A stretch of 39,790 nt of DNA from NCBI GenBank assembly GCA_030065935.1, contig JASJCP010000048.1, positions 1-39,790 of the forward strand. Direction: 5' to 3'. This DNA is from Xenococcaceae cyanobacterium MO_167.B27 (lineage in GTDB: Bacteria; Cyanobacteriota; Cyanobacteriia; Cyanobacteriales; Xenococcaceae). The notes under the pieces were generated by a model. That model saw only the letters and a program-made list of their open reading frames with translations, made no database searches and was not told the origin of the DNA. Positions 108-33,238 of this stretch are shown here, piece after piece. Numbering within the stretch: position 1 is the first letter of the stretch; the number at the start of each line of letters is the position of its first letter. A program made the translations under genes and the position numbers.

Positions 108-2342
108 TCAATGCCAAACTCCTATCGTATACCTTTGCTGCTGCTTAACTTGTTTAACAGCGATCGCCACTGCCTTTTCCGAACCCACAATCAAAGCCAG
201 CTTCTTAGCTCTCGTAATACCTGTATAAAATAAATTCCGACTCAACATAATATAGTGCTGAGTATAGAGAGGAAGGATGACAACGGGATATTCCGAACCC
301 TGACTTTTATGTATACTGGTAGCCCAAGCTAAAGTAAGTTCGTTTAAATCTGCGTAATCATAGGTTACATCGCGACCATCGAAATCGATAATTACTTCCT
401 TCTCGGCAAAATCGATCGCTCTGACTATGCCCAAGTCACCATTAAATACTTCCTTGTTGTAATCATTTTTAAGCTGCATTACGCGATCGCCCATTCTTAA
501 AATACTATCTCCCCTGACTAACTGTGTCTTTTCTTCACTGGGAGGATTAATCAGTTGTTGTAGCACTTTATTTAGATTCCGAGTACCAACAACACCTCTA
601 GTCATGGGACATAGCACCTGGACATCAGTAGCAGGATTAAAACCAGCTTTGGGTATGTAATGCTCGATGAGGTCACAGATAGTTTGTACCCCATGTTCTG
701 GTTCTGTTCCCCCTGAATGCCAGAGACAGTCAGAGGTAGCTTTCATGCTAATGGGTTCGAGTTGGGGATAATGACCATGATTAATTTGATGGGCAGTGCG
801 AATAATGGCACTGGATGCAGCCTGACGGAAGACTTTAGTTAAACGGACAACGGGGATTTTATATGAAGCGATTAAATCTTTGAGAACATTTCCTGGTCCT
901 ACTGAGGGAAGCTGATCGATATCTCCTACCAGCAACACCTGACAATCTTCTGGAATAGCTTTAAATAAGGCATGGGAGATAAACAAATCCATCATACTAG
1001 ATTCATCTATAACGATCGCCTCACACTCTAGAGGATTATCCAAATCCCGTTTAAAACCCATCTTGCTTGGGTCGAATTCAAGCAGTCTATGAATGGTTTT
1101 AGCTTCAATTCCCGTCATTTCACTCAATCGTTTCGCTGCTCTGCCTGTAGGTGCTGCACAAGCGATTTTCTTGCCCATTGCTTTCCACAACTTGCAGACT
1201 GTATGGACTGTAAAAGTTTTACCCGTTCCTGGTCCTCCAGTGAGAATCATCAATTTTTCCGAGGCTGCTTTAGCTACTGCTACATACTGCTGCGGTGATA
1301 GTTGAATCTTTCTCGATGCAGTGTAACGATTAATCCAACTCTTTACGCGCTCTACATCTACATCTAAACTGGTTTTGAGTTTTTGCTGTAACAGTTTGGC
1401 TAGATGCTGTTCACTGTAAAAAAAGCTGGGTTTGTAGTAAATTGGCTCATCATCATCTTGTTCTCTGATTAATTCCTCTAACTTGACCATTTCTGAAAGA
1501 ATTGTAGCGATCGCTTCTTCATCAGCTTCATGTTCTATTTTTTCTCCTATCTCCGTACTCATTTCGTTCTCCTGATGTTCTACTGAAGATTCTTTAACTC
1601 CTTTGATAGTCAGTAATTCACGACTCATAGGAACAATCTTACTTTCAGGTAAATAACAATGACCATCTTCAGATGCTTTATCTAAAACATGAAGCACTCC
1701 TGCACGGTAACGAAACTTTGACCAGGGTGATACACCAATATTACGGGCTATCTTATCCGCAGTTAAAAATCCAATACCAAAAATATCTATAGCCAATTGA
1801 TAGGGATTGTTCGTAACTGTCGCGACCAGCGAAGCTGTTGCCTTCGGCACCGCCTCTTCTCCATACTGTTTGTATATTTTCACTGCATAGGTAGTAGAGA
1901 CACCATGACTTTGCAGGAATATCATCACATCCTTGATAGATTTCTGTTCCTCCCAGGTGCGCTGAATCATGGCAACTCTTTTATTAGCTATGCCTGGTAC
2001 TTCAATGAGTCGCTCTATCTGATTCTCGATAATATCTAATGTCTCTAAACCAAAATGCTTAACAATGCGTTTGGCGGTAACGGGTCCCACACCCTTAATC
2101 AACCCACTACCTAAATATTTCTCAATCCCTGTGAGGGTAGCTGGCTTGGTTTCTTGATACTTAACAACCTGAAATTGAGAACCATATTGGGGATGTTCTC
2201 GCCATTGACCCTGTAACTGTAGAGTCTGTCCTGCCTGGATGTTAGCAAAGCTCCCCACAATAGTAGTTAACTGCTTAACATTTCCCGTATTCAACCGCGC
2301 TACCGTATAGCCCGATTCAGATGAGTGAAACGTAATTCTCAA
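108..2342 (-). CDS. recD2: RecD2-type ATP-dependent 5'-3' DNA helicase (probable 5' frameshift)
   Basis: Superfamily 1B helicase of the RecD2/YrrC type, which unwinds DNA 5'-3' without RecBC partners. Order of parts: N-terminal OB-like region, helix-hairpin-helix segment near residues 80-95 (IKGVGPVTAKRIVKHFG), Walker A GGPGTGKT near residue 367, Walker B VIDESSMMD near 444, and the C-terminal UvrD-like motif ATSIHKSQGSEYPVVILPL near 675. Length of 744 residues is normal for the family. The only start available in this frame is TTG at 2342, preceded four codons earlier by TGA, and the protein begins inside the conserved N-terminal motif (RITFHSSESGYTVARL). The expected preceding residues (LTGV..E) are encoded in another frame from ATG 2394, so the gene is probably frameshifted at its 5' end, or the assembly lost two bases. 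The helicase core itself is intact. Confidence 0.9.
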   Translation of the reverse strand: MRITFHSSESGYTVARLNTGNVKQLTTIVGSFANIQAGQTLQLQGQWREHPQYGSQFQVVKYQETKPATLTGIEKYLGSGLIKGVGPVTAKRIVKHFGLETLDIIENQIERLIEVPGIANKRVAMIQRTWEEQKSIKDVMIFLQSHGVSTTYAVKIYKQYGEEAVPKATASLVATVTNNPYQLAIDIFGIGFLTADKIARNIGVSPWSKFRYRAGVLHVLDKASEDGHCYLPESKIVPMSRELLTIKGVKESSVEHQENEMSTEIGEKIEHEADEEAIATILSEMVKLEELIREQDDDEPIYYKPSFFYSEQHLAKLLQQKLKTSLDVDVERVKSWINRYTASRKIQLSPQQYVAVAKAASEKLMILTGGPGTGKTFTVHTVCKLWKAMGKKIACAAPTGRAAKRLSEMTGIEAKTIHRLLEFDPSKMGFKRDLDNPLECEAIVIDESSMMDLFISHALFKAIPEDCQVLLVGDIDQLPSVGPGNVLKDLIASYKIPVVRLTKVFRQAASSAIIRTAHQINHGHYPQLEPISMKATSDCLWHSGGTEPEHGVQTICDLIEHYIPKAGFNPATDVQVLCPMTRGVVGTRNLNKVLQQLINPPSEEKTQLVRGDSILRMGDRVMQLKNDYNKEVFNGDLGIVRAIDFAEKEVIIDFDGRDVTYDYADLNELTLAWATSIHKSQGSEYPVVILPLYTQHYIMLSRNLFYTGITRAKKLALIVGSEKAVAIAVKQVKQQQRYTIGVWH

Positions 2343-2394: not shown

Positions 2395-2552
2395 AAAACA
2401 ATTGTTCTACGTTCTTCCGCTAACAGTTTACAACAATGATTAACTAATCTTATTGATACAATAAATATCTATTTGTCAAGTATGCTTTACAAAACTAAAT
2501 ATATTTGTTACATTAATTTACATAGAACAGTAACAACACCTCAGAACGCCCT

Positions 2553-2723
2553 ATGTACACCAGACAATTAGATAACGGAACTCTTAACAACTACGCTGTT
2601 GAGCCTAAAATGACTTATCAAGAATATCCAGCAGTATGGGAACAAAAACGCTATCTACAACAAGGTGCAGTGGCAGCATTTTTAGTTACAGCATTAGTTT
2701 TAGTTTCAGTAGCAGTCAGCTAA
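2553..2723 (+). CDS. psb34: Psb34-like Hlip-related photosystem II assembly protein
   Basis: A 56-residue single-pass membrane protein. The N-terminal soluble part (MYTRQLDNGTLNNYAVEPK) has the 'G.LNN(F/Y)A.EP' signature of Psb34 (Synechocystis ssl1498 type). One hydrophobic helix follows near residues 38-55, ending in VAVS. Psb34 is known to bind CP47-containing PSII assembly intermediates in place of high-light-inducible proteins. It sits alone between recD2 (opposite strand) and a small conserved gene about 70 bases downstream, which may share its transcript. The call rests on recall of the family motif and the single-helix layout. Confidence 0.75.
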   Translation: MYTRQLDNGTLNNYAVEPKMTYQEYPAVWEQKRYLQQGAVAAFLVTALVLVSVAVS

Positions 2724-2795
2724 TGGTTTGAGACAGTCAGATTTATTTAAACAACAACTTTTAATTAACTTTTAATCGAGGTCTAGAAGATAATC

Positions 2796-2993
2796 ATGTT
2801 TGCACCAATCGTCGTTCTGGTTCGTAATCGTCTCGGTAAAGCTAAATTCAACAAACTTCGCGGAAGGGCGATCGCTCTTCACTCTCAGGTCATTAGAGCA
2901 GTTTGCAATCGTATCGGTATCGAAAGAACAACTAGACAAAACCTAATTAGAACGGCTCGCGACAATGGCAAAAAGTTAGGTTTTCTCGCTTAA
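2796..2993 (+). CDS. Conserved cyanobacterial small basic protein
   Basis: A 65-residue protein, rich in Arg and Lys, with no membrane segment or cysteine. It resembles a small conserved cyanobacterial family whose function I cannot name: FAPIVVLVRNRLGKAKFN at the N-terminus and a C-terminal helix ending GKKLGFLA. The strong conservation pattern and basic charge would suit nucleic-acid or phospholipid binding, but that is inference. It follows psb34 closely on the same strand, and its transcript probably ends at the terminator at 3137-3161, from which it is now separated by a MITE. Confidence 0.75.
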   Translation: MFAPIVVLVRNRLGKAKFNKLRGRAIALHSQVIRAVCNRIGIERTTRQNLIRTARDNGKKLGFLA

Positions 2994-3042
2994 AATATTT
3001 TTCCTTTCTCTTTTTTCTCGTCAACATTGATTTTCTCCTACT

Positions 3043-3135
3043 TATAGTCATTTCAATTAAGTTTGAGACAAAGCATTCTTCCTATCACAAGTCTTTGAAG
3101 AAAAAAGTGTTTCATTTTTATTTGAAATGACTATA
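3043..3135. mobile_element. MITE-like element with terminal inverted repeats
   Basis: A 93-base element bounded by perfect 14-base inverted repeats TATAGTCATTTCAA / TTGAAATGACTATA. Weaker matching continues inward (left TGAGACA against right TGAAACA) to about 28 bases. The ends begin and finish in TA, as in IS630/Tc1-mariner-type MITEs. It has no coding capacity. It lies between the 65-residue gene and that gene's probable terminator. Confidence 0.75.
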
Positions 3136-3136
3136 A

Positions 3137-3161
3137 CCTCGGCGCACATCCGAGGTTTTTT
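3137..3161 (+). terminator. Rho-independent terminator
   Basis: Stem CCTCGG / CCGAGG with a seven-base loop, followed by six T. It probably ends the psb34 - small basic protein transcript; the MITE at 3043-3135 now sits directly in front of it. Confidence 0.8.
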
Positions 3162-3224
3162 GCTGTTTAACTCAACCAAATTGGTAATGTATTTGTTACG
3201 AGGTTATTAATTGGTCACAAATTA

Positions 3225-3713
3225 ATGAGTCAAACTTGGTTGGGCATTGACCCAGGACTAGCAATCATCGGCTGGGCATTTTTAGAAGAAGGTCAATATG
3301 GCAATGCAGAGTTACTGGACTAGGGGACGATAGAAACCAACAAACAATTAACTACAGCAGAGAGATTATTAGAGATCGAGCAGGATATGGTGGAGTTGCT
3401 GGGTGAGTTTCAACCCCATAATGTAGCTATCGAAATGCCTTTTTTCAATCGAACTATCAAAGCAGCAGGTGGAGTGTTACAGGCTTTTGGCGTGATTAAT
3501 TTAGTCTGTCACCGAGAGACGGGAGTTATACCAGTATATCTGCATCAATCTAGTTGGAAATGTCATTTAGGTTATGGCAAAGCTGATAAGAATGAAGTAG
3601 CTGATATGGTACAAGTATTATTTAATTTAGAAACTCTGCCCATTGATGATAGCGTTGATGCTATTGGTATTGGTTATGCAGGTTTGTGTGGTTTGAGAAA
3701 TAATATTGATTGA
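3225..3713 (+). pseudogene. ruvC: RuvC-family Holliday-junction resolvase, split by in-frame TAG
   Basis: Reading from ATG 3225 gives a 162-residue protein of RuvC length and order, but codon 33 (3321-3323) is TAG in the context LLD-stop-GTIET, where the family normally has Tyr or Phe. Before the stop is the first catalytic motif, GIDPGLAIIGW (Asp). After it are IEMPFF (catalytic Glu) and the C-terminal DSVDAIGIG (catalytic Asp pair). All acidic residues survive and no other stop or frameshift is present. An internal ATG at 3387 could only yield a resolvase lacking the first Asp. Either a very recent nonsense mutation, a base-call error, or readthrough. A second intact ruvC elsewhere in the genome would be expected if this one is dead. 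Confidence 0.85.
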
Positions 3714-3747
3714 TGATGTAATAAGATAGCGATCGCGCTTATCTTGG

Positions 3748-4203
3748 TTAAATCCAATATTCTTCCAATACTTCCATTGCTTCATCTTGATAATCTGAAT
3801 GTTCATCAAATACCATCCGCTCAAGGAACTTAATAATTACTGATTTTTGTTCTGCTGTAAGCACAGATAATCTGGGGGGTTCTCTGTCAGGAGGACGTAA
3901 AGAGAATAATGTACCCTCAACAACAAGAGAAGATTCTGGAGGAATTTCAGCAGTAGCATGACGGAGTGTATAGTCAATTAGAAAAGGTAAATAGTAACGC
4001 CAAGATAAAGGATCGAGATGAGGAAGTGCAAAGTAAGCATACTTTTGTAAGTAATCATCAGTAAGCTCGTCTAGTTGTTCATCATAGTCAGGAGGTAGAT
4101 CGTAGCTATCTACAGCATCTCCAGCACGTAGGGTCATTGGTGGTATTTTAATCGAGTCACTTTCAAAGGCAGTATAAGCCAAGTTGTTGAGTTCTGAATT
4201 CAT
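3748..4203 (-). CDS. DUF6714-like hypothetical protein
   Basis: A soluble acidic protein of 151 residues. It has the features I associate with the DUF6714 family: an N-terminal RAGDAVDSYDLPPDYD segment, the central HLDPLSWRYYLPFLIDYTLRH, and a C-terminal helix ending LEEYW. Function is unknown. The start is taken as ATG 4203; a TTG two codons upstream is possible but has no better ribosome site. It is convergent with the ruvC relic and divergent from the cupin gene. No signal peptide or membrane helix is visible. Confidence 0.7.
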   Translation of the reverse strand: MNSELNNLAYTAFESDSIKIPPMTLRAGDAVDSYDLPPDYDEQLDELTDDYLQKYAYFALPHLDPLSWRYYLPFLIDYTLRHATAEIPPESSLVVEGTLFSLRPPDREPPRLSVLTAEQKSVIIKFLERMVFDEHSDYQDEAMEVLEEYWI

Positions 4204-7604: not shown

Positions 7605-8021
7605 TTATTTATCAGGAGATTTTTGTTTCTCGACGTAAGCCTTAAGTTGCTCCACAGTGACACCACCACAACTAGCAACAAAGTATGCTCCCGTCCAAAA
7701 AGAAGACTTGCCATAAAAATATTTATTACTAAGTTCGGGATACTCTTTACGAATCAATCTAGAACTTACTGTTTTAAGGTTAGCAATTAATTTGGACAAT
7801 TGAACATCAGGCTTAAACTCAATTAATAAACGGCAATGGTCACTTTCGCCATTAAAATCATTTAATTGACACCCCCATTTATCTAGAGTCTCTTTAAAAA
7901 TAACATTTAGTCTTTCAAGTATTTCTTGATTGATAGCTTTTTTACGATACTTGGTAACAAAGACAATATGTGCGCTAAGTTTATATACTGACCTAAAACC
8001 TTTATTATAATTGTTTGACAT
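7605..8021 (-). CDS. tnpA: IS200/IS605 TnpA (HUH Y1 transposase), HUH motif degenerate
   Basis: A 138-residue protein of normal length for the single-strand transposase TnpA. N-terminal core: YKLSAHIVFVTKYRKKAI. The central metal motif, normally H-x-H (DHVHLLIE), reads DHCRLLIEF, with Arg replacing the second His. The catalytic Tyr helix VEQLKAYVEKQ is present near the C-terminus, as is the AYFVASCGG strand. The gene is divergent from the broken tnpB at 8073, the IS605/IS608 arrangement, with 51 bases between starts. Loss of the second His should abolish Mg binding and strand cleavage, so the reading frame is intact but the enzyme is probably dead. Confidence 0.88.
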   Translation of the reverse strand: MSNNYNKGFRSVYKLSAHIVFVTKYRKKAINQEILERLNVIFKETLDKWGCQLNDFNGESDHCRLLIEFKPDVQLSKLIANLKTVSSRLIRKEYPELSNKYFYGKSSFWTGAYFVASCGGVTVEQLKAYVEKQKSPDK

Positions 8022-8072: not shown

Positions 8073-8455
8073 ATGATTACCTACACTTACCAATACAAAA
8101 TCAAGCCAACCAAGCAGCAAATTCAGCAGTTTGACCAATATTTAGATATTTGTAGAAATGTTGACAATTATGCCCATGCTGAACGAAAAGCATGGCTTGA
8201 ATCTCGTAAGTCAAGGATTGATTGTTGCTGGATAGTTTCTGAATATATCATTACGGCACGATGCACCATTTCCTAGTTACAATAACCAAGCAAAAGCGTT
8301 AACTGAAGCTAAAAAGAAATTTTCTCATTTAAAGCTGGTAAACGCTCAAACATTGCAGCAAGTCCTCAAAAGGTTAGATAAGGCTTGGACTGATTTTTTC
8401 AAAGTGCCTTCCCGTGGGTTTCCTCGGTTTAAAACTAAAAATAAATTTCGTACCA
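8073..8455 (+). pseudogene. tnpB: TnpB 5' fragment, frameshifted and cut off by a group II intron
   Basis: N-terminal part of an IS200/IS605-family TnpB (RNA-guided nuclease ancestor). YQYKIKPTKQQIQQFDQYLD starts it; the frame is lost near 8255, and the next frame continues with KKFSHLKLVNAQTLQQVLKRL and DKAWTDFFKVPSRGFPRF. A second tnpB relic at 32.9 kb carries nearly the same text, confirming the reading. The fragment stops around 8447-8460, where it abuts group II intron reverse-transcriptase sequence. The RuvC catalytic part and the right end of the element are absent. Confidence 0.8.
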
Positions 8456-8456
8456 C

Positions 8457-9523
8457 GAAATTATGGGTTCAGAACAGGACGCAGCGCACATGACGCACAA
8501 AAAGTCCTGTTTCTCAACCTCAACAGCAGTTCTAAAGGATATCAAAAACGAATCCTAGAACTAGACATCGAGAAATGCTTTGACCGCATAAGCCACAAGG
8601 CAATCTTAGAGCGGGTTATTGCTCCTGAGTTCATTATAAACGGCTTACGCAGTTGCCTGAAATCAGGTACAAACCCAGAATTCCCCGAACAAGGAACACC
8701 ACAAGGAGGAGTGGTGTCCCCGCTATTAGCCAACATAGCATTAAATGGTATTGAATCATTAGGGCAAAGCATAAGATATGCGGATGACATGGTATTTATC
8801 TTAAAACCAAATGATAGTGCTGAAAAATTACTTGTCAAAGTTGAGGAGTTTCTTGCTGCTAGGGGAATGAATGTTAGTAAGAAGAAGACGAAAGTAACAG
8901 CCTCGACAGATGGTTTTGACTTTCTCGGATGGCATTTCTACGTCCAGAAAAACAACGGAAAGTTCCGAAGCATACCATCTAAGGATAACTTCAAAGCGTT
9001 CCGAAAAAAGGTCAAAAACGTCGTCAACAATTCTAACTATGGCGCGGAAACAAAAGTGACAAAATTAGCTCCCATTATCAGGGGATGGAGGAATTATCAT
9101 AAATACTGCAAGATGGATGGAAGTAGGTTCAGTTTATGGTTCATGAGCGACAGAACCCACAAAGTATTCCTTAAACAGGAAACCATCAATAAACATCAAG
9201 CAGAAAAGATGGTAAAACAGGCATTCCCAAGCGTTAGTTACTCAGAGAACAAATTTGTCAATGTCAAAGGGGACAAATCACCTTTTGATGGAGACTTAAA
9301 CTACTGGTCAAAGAGAAACAGCGTCCTATACGATGGAGCGACATCAAAAACACTTAGAAAACAAAGTCATTCGTGCGGACATTGTGGATTAAAATTTCTC
9401 GACGGAGAAAGAGTAGAGTTACATAATATAGATGGCAACCACAACAACTGGAAAACCCAGAATCTCCTAGCGGTTCACAGAAGTTGTCACCAATATGTCC
9501 ACAGGAGCAAAAACGAAAGTTAA
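8457..9523 (+). pseudogene. Group II intron reverse transcriptase/maturase with HNH domain, N-terminally truncated
   Basis: Recognisable intron text starts at NYGFRTGRSAHDAQKVLF (block RT2). It continues through LELDIEKCFDRISH (first catalytic Asp), GTPQGGVVSPLLANI, the YADD active site (SIRYADDMVFIL), and the FLGWHFY thumb/X region with RGWRNYHKYC. The C-terminus is an HNH endonuclease with CGHCGLKF, LHNIDGNHNNW and HRSCH. The missing N-terminus (blocks RT0 and RT1) leaves an incomplete enzyme; an upstream GTG at 8414 only adds residues from the wrong frame of tnpB. It is not a DGR-type reverse transcriptase. Confidence 0.88.
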
Positions 9524-32772: not shown

Positions 32773-32927
32773 GAAGAAAGTGCAATCTCAGAAAGGAAAA
32801 CCAAAGATTACTATTAATCGTCGTCAACAGTCAGCTCAGTATTTTGTGGAGCAACTTGACAAAAGAGAAATTTCCTCATTTAAAACTGGTAAATGCTCAA
32901 TGTTTGCAACAAGTTTTAAAGCGGTTA

Positions 32928-33029
32928 TATCAAATCACTTTAGATATGCTGCACATTAATCTCCCTTGTCCTCCTTGTCTCCCTTGTCTCCCCATCAGTC
33001 ATCTGTAGCAAATTTAAAGGGAAATGATA
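32928..33029. mobile_element. MITE with TTA target duplication, inside tnpB
   Basis: A 102-base element. Ends TATCAAATCACTTTAGAT and, inverted, TATCATTTCCCTTTAAAT match at 14 of 18 positions. It is flanked by TTA on both sides (32925-32927, 33030-33032). Removing it and one TTA restores the tnpB reading KRLDKAWSDFF. The core contains CTTGTCTCCC-type pyrimidine runs also seen, inverted, at 5886-5922. Confidence 0.75.
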
Positions 33030-33238
33030 TTAGATAAGGCTTGGTCTGATTTTTTTAAAATACCAGAACGAGGATTTCCTAGATTTCGTTCTAAAAACAG
33101 ATTTCGGAGTTTTATTTTTCCCCAACTAGGTAAAAATTGTTTAGAAGAAGGAAGAGTTAAACTCCCCAGTATTGGCTGGATTAGAATAAGACAATCAAGA
33201 AATTATCCCACTGGCTTTATTCCTAAACAATTCCAGAT

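What the first reader, a model, noticed from the sequence alone, without database searches (positions are those of the whole stretch)
3225..3713. ruvC complete in every catalytic residue but stopped by TAG at codon 33
The only fault is TAG at 3321-3323, where the family has Tyr or Phe (LLD-Y-GTIET). No other lesion is present, so it is either very recent, a base-call error, or read through. RuvC is a core enzyme; loss would matter unless a second copy exists.
Basis: seen in the sequence. Interest (0 to 1): 0.5.

Follow-up and report, generated by a model that had tools for sequence, protein, structure and literature searches.

The report
Freshly broken spare copy of ruvC
A cyanobacterium carries two genes for the DNA-junction-cutting enzyme RuvC, and the spare one has a single stop codon early in an otherwise perfect reading frame, which most likely marks the ordinary, very recent loss of a second copy.

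Summary
Window 3225-3713 is a ruvC frame with one in-frame TAG at 3321-3323, and its four catalytic acids align with those of E. coli RuvC. A core enzyme is not lost: contig C63 carries a second ruvC without stops, in the suf/ftrV context also seen in both same-genus genomes where a ruvC was found. The window copy is a second lineage beside recD2. In the two other sampled genomes with ruvC at that spot it is broken differently (3' end lost in MO_188.B19, first 18 codons lost in MO_192.B19), and each keeps another ruvC. Since its split from MO_188.B19 the window copy shows about 19 silent and 3-4 replacement differences, against about 71 replacements expected without constraint. The stop is therefore very recent, an assembly error or, least likely, read through. 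No amber-suppressor tRNA turned up, and TAG ends 7 of 30 ORFs checked in the window. Best reading: a recent nonsense mutation in a dispensable paralogue. Ordinary.

The parts
3225..3320 (+). First 32 codons of the window ruvC copy, with catalytic D9
3321..3323 (+). In-frame TAG at codon 33
3324..3713 (+). Remaining ruvC frame, open to the natural stop, with E70, D142 and D145
3387..3713 (+). 108-codon ORF from an internal ATG (codon 55); would lack D9
108..2342 (-). RecD2-like helicase ORF (744 codons), upstream and divergent; its homologue lies beside ruvC in several relatives and on a Chondrocystis plasmid
   Evidence: named by homology to the plasmid annotation 'helicase, RecD/TraA family protein'
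2553..2723 (+). 56-codon ORF, hli/scp-like (name recalled), conserved next to recD2
2796..2993 (+). 65-codon conserved ORF ('up64' here), immediately upstream of ruvC
3045..3133 (.). 89-bp element with terminal inverted repeats, flanked by TA (MITE-like), absent from the MO_188.B19 locus; 9 long copies in the genome
3137..3161 (+). Terminator-like hairpin plus T-run before ruvC; the relative has an equivalent hairpin with changed bases
   Evidence: read by eye

Best explanation
This is a second ruvC that was inactivated very recently by one nonsense mutation. The genome keeps a RuvC gene without stops on contig C63 in the suf/ftrV context (shown), which presumably resolves Holliday junctions together with RuvA and RuvB (inferred; both genes are present). 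The window copy belongs to a separate paralogous lineage beside recD2 (shown). With the stop at codon 33 it can give only a 32-residue peptide carrying one of four catalytic acids, so it should make no resolvase (inferred). The gene was under strong purifying selection until very recently (shown from substitution counts), and two sampled relatives have lost the copy at the same locus by other lesions (shown).
For: One TAG and no other lesion. A second ruvC, free of stops, at C63:68040-68471, with one strong ruvB and one ruvA match elsewhere. C63 context sufD-sufS-ftrV-ruvC, shared with L042 and L045, which group with it at 100/99. The window copy groups with L044 at 100/99. Parallel loss: L044 is cut after about residue 131, losing D142 and D145; L066/L101 has codons 1-18 replaced, with up64 about 1.1 kb from ruvC, losing D9. 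Both genomes keep another ruvC without stops: G002:C402 and G026:C18. dN/dS window versus L044 is 0.043. Three-point counts on the window branch: mean 19.3 silent and 3.4 replacement differences (range 1.2-5.2 over eight outgroups), against 71 expected if neutral; the upper 95% limit for the unconstrained share of the branch is at most about 0.15 under the assumptions tried.
Against: The strong constraint seen since the split from MO_188.B19 (dS 0.59, dN/dS 0.043) means the copy was useful for a long time although the C63 copy was present, so 'redundant' is an inference. A real pseudogene should in time gather amino-acid changes and further lesions, and none is seen, so the same data fit an assembly error. 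No reads, transcripts or proteins were available. The genomes holding the two other broken copies are drafts of 76% and 82% completeness (their records are titled MAG), whose breakpoints could themselves be assembly faults.
Confidence: 0.71

Rival explanations
1. Assembly or base-call error: the living strain has an intact second ruvC.
For: A single substitution is the only fault; there is no excess of amino-acid changes on the branch, as expected of a gene still in use; the assembly is a 282-contig draft.
Against: Two sampled relatives have broken this same copy in other ways, which raises the prior for real loss. A chance error that makes a stop exactly in this gene is a small target (inference).
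Confidence: 0.2
2. The TAG is read through or decoded, so a full-length RuvC is still made from this copy, perhaps at low level.
For: The frame shows no loss of constraint up to codon 129, its last 33 codons keep the family's residues, and position 33 tolerates Tyr, Phe and Cys.
Against: No CTA-anticodon tRNA among the 47 matches of the tRNA search, read by ARAGORN or by eye for two tRNA-like stretches that ARAGORN left out. Five hits of a suppressor pattern hold no tRNA by ARAGORN. TAG ends 7 of 30 checked ORFs in the window. The tRNA census is not exhaustive: 150 of 555 candidates were scored.
Confidence: 0.04
3. Translation restarts at the ATG of codon 55 and the 108-residue C-terminal piece has a role, for example by blocking the intact RuvC.
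For: An open ORF 3387-3713 exists and matches RuvC profiles from profile position 54 (NF000711) or 51 (TIGR00228).
Against: It lacks D9. MO_188.B19 kept the opposite (N-terminal) part, so no common fragment is conserved.
Confidence: 0.03

Closest known systems
SynRuvC (sll0896) of Synechocystis sp. PCC 6803 (PMC11063404; abstract, sections 20, 26, 27 and search passages read)
   Same: A cyanobacterial RuvC of what appears to be the same divergent lineage: the Synechocystis salina homologue L073 is 65-68% identical to the two copies here. The paper reports Holliday junction cleavage, loss of cleavage when the C-terminus is removed, and only knockdown strains obtained.
   Different: In the parts read, the paper names one ruvC homologue in that genome and it is active; here there are two, and the window copy is interrupted. 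PCC 6803 itself was not compared here.
Paralogous ruvC on contig C63 of the same genome
   Same: 75.8% identical protein, same length, same catalytic residues.
   Different: No stop; suf/ftrV context.
Plasmid-borne ruvC of Chondrocystis sp. NIES-4102 plasmid3 (AP018284.1)
   Same: 79.5% DNA identity over 86% of the query, window 3150-3760, and a RecD-family helicase gene nearby.
   Different: Frame uninterrupted in the annotation; it lies on a plasmid, next to a lipase gene rather than the hli and up64 genes.
Ordinary bacterial nonsense pseudogene of a duplicated gene (general knowledge)
   Same: Disabling mutation, with a copy without stops elsewhere.
   Different: The lesion is so young that no further decay is visible.

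Membership tests
RuvC Holliday junction resolvase (PF02075) | Profile score above the curated cut-off | tested here: met
   80 bits against 22.2, with one TAG inside
RuvC Holliday junction resolvase (PF02075) | Four catalytic acids | tested here: met
   D9, E70, D142, D145 present in the frame; only D9 lies before the stop
RuvC Holliday junction resolvase (PF02075) | Uninterrupted coding frame | tested here: not met
   TAG at codon 33
NCBIfam RuvC equivalogs (NF000711, TIGR00228) | Score above the curated cut-off, frame read through the stop | tested here: not met
   114.6 of 163 and 61.6 of 100.65; a divergent lineage, so this alone does not exclude RuvC function
Pseudogene of a dispensable paralogue | Disabling lesion | tested here: met
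Pseudogene of a dispensable paralogue | Another copy in the genome without stops | tested here: met
   C63:68040-68471, 162 residues
Pseudogene of a dispensable paralogue | Relaxed constraint after the lesion | tested here: not met
   about 3.4 replacement differences against 71 expected if neutral; no relaxation would be visible yet if the lesion is very young
Recoded (read-through) gene | Decoder tRNA with CTA anticodon | tested here: not met
   none found; census not exhaustive
Recoded (read-through) gene | Full-length product | not testable with these tools
   no protein data

The most novel reading that the evidence does not exclude
The second ruvC is still used: the stop is passed at low frequency, or under stress, giving a small supply of a recD2-linked accessory resolvase, while relatives that did not evolve this have lost the copy. 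The strong constraint on the frame does not exclude this.
Probability: 0.04. Interest if true: 0.5.

Novelty: new member of a known kind. Interest (0 to 1): 0.18.

Why it matters
It removes an alarming reading (a living cell without its Holliday junction resolvase) and replaces it with a small example of parallel loss: three sampled cyanobacteria carry a second ruvC at one locus and each has broken it differently, while keeping another copy. It also shows that two paralogous RuvC lineages coexist in some Xenococcaceae, the window's lying beside recD2 and having a relative on a plasmid, which annotators could confuse.

Tried and rejected
A search for a suppressor tRNA gave none. One tRNA-like stretch left unread by plain ARAGORN (L166) is read as tRNA-His with an insert in the intron-permitting run. 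Two stretches of the C134 array that both ARAGORN runs left out have Tyr (GTA) and Leu (TAA) anticodons by my own reading. A C134 member with a four-base anticodon (aaga) is read as Phe in the intron-permitting run; another four-base case (cgaa) lies in L134 and was not followed up. Neither is CTA.

Phage origin of this RuvC type: only matches under 60% identity in the phage collection (15 records), and 9 pattern matches but no tblastn relative in the viral contigs. Rejected as a close source. Plasmids: 34 records by protein, one of them close (Chondrocystis, 72.0%; the next 46.8%).

General loss of RuvC function or of the RuvABC system: rejected, because ruvA, ruvB and a second ruvC are present.

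Literature: searches 'ruvC + cyanobacteri + Holliday junction resolvase' (25 papers, 15 listed), 'Pleurocapsales + pseudogene' (7 listed) and 'ruvC + plasmid-encoded + cyanobacteri + RecD' (1) showed, in the listings, no title on this second copy. Only PMC11063404 was opened (abstract, sections 20, 26, 27, passages). These three searches do not prove absence from print.

Rows dropped before counts: L001 and L002 (shorter repeats of L003 and L004), L080 (fragmentary match) and loci matching the C63 copy at under 50% identity. One search lists 17 identical proteins; 16 of them were dropped from the tree, because L044 was cut to 130 residues there and its uncut twin L082 therefore stayed as a row.

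Full report
WHAT IS THERE. Window 3225-3713 reads as a full-length RuvC frame of 162 codons plus the terminal stop, with a single internal TAG at codon 33, 3321-3323. Pfam RuvC scores it at 80 bits against a cut-off of 22.2. Aligning the paralogue to E. coli RuvC (1hjr) places D9, E70, D142 and D145 on D7, E66, D138 and D141; the window frame has the same residues. Codon 33 corresponds to Ser30 of E. coli. In 52 aligned rows (51 distinct genes) the column is 44 Y, 6 F, 1 C and the window's stop.

A SECOND COPY EXISTS. The own-genome search (7.02 Mb, 282 contigs, 98.55% complete) gives two ruvC matches: the window and C63:68040-68471, the latter without stops. The C63 gene follows sufC-like, sufD, sufS and ftrV genes (names recalled), and sufD-sufS-ftrV-ruvC is also the order in two same-genus genomes, G002 and G003 (loci L042/L083 and L045/L084). 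The fourth genome of the genus, G001 (81% complete), gave no ruvC match. The two proteins of the window's genome are 75.8% identical. ruvB has one strong match (248 bits; the other 11 are at most 26.5 bits) and ruvA one. Loss of the window copy therefore does not leave the genome without ruvC.

TWO LINEAGES. In a 52-row tree the C63 copy groups with L042 and L045 (100/99) and the window copy with the MO_188.B19 gene L044/L082 (100/99). The fork that joins the window pair to eight other copies is less certain (87/92). The window copy sits beside recD2, an hli-like ORF and a 65-codon ORF. Chondrocystis NIES-4102 carries a relative on plasmid3, with a RecD-family helicase and a lipase gene next to it; L098 and L099 also pair recD2 with ruvC.

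PARALLEL LOSS AT ONE LOCUS. The 65-codon neighbour was found in 16 of the 60 genomes searched, the window's own among them. In 7 of the other 13 genomes I looked at 8 loci in stretches of 5-9 kb and found no ruvC; in one of these, G008, the contig ends about 0.76 kb past the neighbour gene. For the remaining loci only about 1.5 kb or less on each side was seen, so absence there is less sure. In G002 the frame matches to about residue 131 and then runs into unrelated sequence, losing D142 and D145; 125 bases of the new sequence are 86% identical to window 32917-33032, a dispersed repeat. In G026 the first 18 codons are replaced by unrelated DNA that carries an inverted repeat (read by eye), losing D9. 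Both keep another ruvC without stops. Three of three are thus broken, each in its own way. The G026 copy also shows more amino-acid change than its sisters (20-27 against 11-19 replacement differences in four three-way comparisons).

HOW OLD IS THE STOP. Against L044, over the first 129 codons and leaving out codon 33, dN/dS is 0.043 with dS 0.59. Three-point counts with eight outgroups give the window branch a mean of 19.3 silent and 3.4 replacement differences (range 1.2-5.2), where a wholly unconstrained branch would show about 71 replacements. Taking 2 to 5 observed replacements and a background dN/dS of 0 to 0.1, the unconstrained share of the branch is at most about 0.15 (95%; the strictest settings leave no room at all). 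Silent differences to the outgroups are near saturation (dS above 1), so this is a rough limit. A stop that young, or none at all in the living strain, fits the data. The same figures speak against plain redundancy: the copy was kept under constraint for a long time beside the C63 copy, so it was presumably useful until recently.

READ-THROUGH. Of the 47 tRNA matches (150 of 555 candidates scored) none has a CTA anticodon by ARAGORN or, for two stretches it left out, by eye. A pattern for amber suppressors gave five places, none a tRNA by ARAGORN. TAG ends 7 of the 30 ORFs that I picked in the window, with a further stop 0 to 48 codons later. There is no positive evidence for recoding.

MECHANISM. 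If the RNA is made, translation stops after 32 residues, leaving only D9 of the active site (shown by sequence; the lack of function is inferred). A restart at ATG 3387 would give 108 residues without D9. The Synechocystis homologue SynRuvC loses cleavage when cut at residue 144 (PMC11063404), and only knockdown strains were obtained, which suggests that one working RuvC is needed in such cells. The C63 copy can supply it here (inferred).

VERDICT. A very recent nonsense mutation in a dispensable paralogue is the best reading (0.71). An assembly error is the main rival (0.20). The case is ordinary in kind; its one mildly interesting feature is the independent breakage of the same copy in three genomes.

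Noticed in passing
window 3045-3133: An 89-bp element with inverted ends (TAGTCATTTCAA / TTGAAATGACTA) flanked by TA; the genome search with 84 bases of it gives 9 long copies (8 at 99-100%, one at 88%) and 2 partial ones. It lies between the 65-codon gene and the hairpin before ruvC and is absent from the MO_188.B19 locus.
   Followed up: partly
60 genomes (own plus 59 relatives): Two very different RuvC types occur in these cyanobacteria: 36 of 60 genomes have a match above 100 bits, 22 have only weaker ones (best 65-92 bits), 2 none. Thirty loci of the first kind are 29-38% identical to the copies here. Five genomes (G010, G017, G020, G021, G026) carry both kinds.
   Followed up: partly
L160 (G000:C134:1800-3600): A dense array of 12 or more tRNA genes, some with unusual anticodon loops or inserts.
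   Followed up: partly
window 32917-33032 and L044 4386-4510: A dispersed repeat (86% identical over 125 bases) that forms the false 3' end of ruvC in MO_188.B19.
   Followed up: partly
L066 about 2550-3380: A roughly 0.8-kb insert with inverted repeats (read by eye) that replaces the 5' end of ruvC in Pleurocapsa MO_192.B19, carrying an open frame of about 125 codons.
   Followed up: no
L044 3078-3230 and L185: recD2 reduced to end fragments at the same locus in MO_188.B19, and present in pieces in G013:C26, so recD2 seems to be decaying there as well.
   Followed up: no
window 7605-8021 (-) and 8414-9523 (+): ORFs that look by eye like an IS200-type transposase and a group II intron reverse transcriptase; no search was run.
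   Followed up: no
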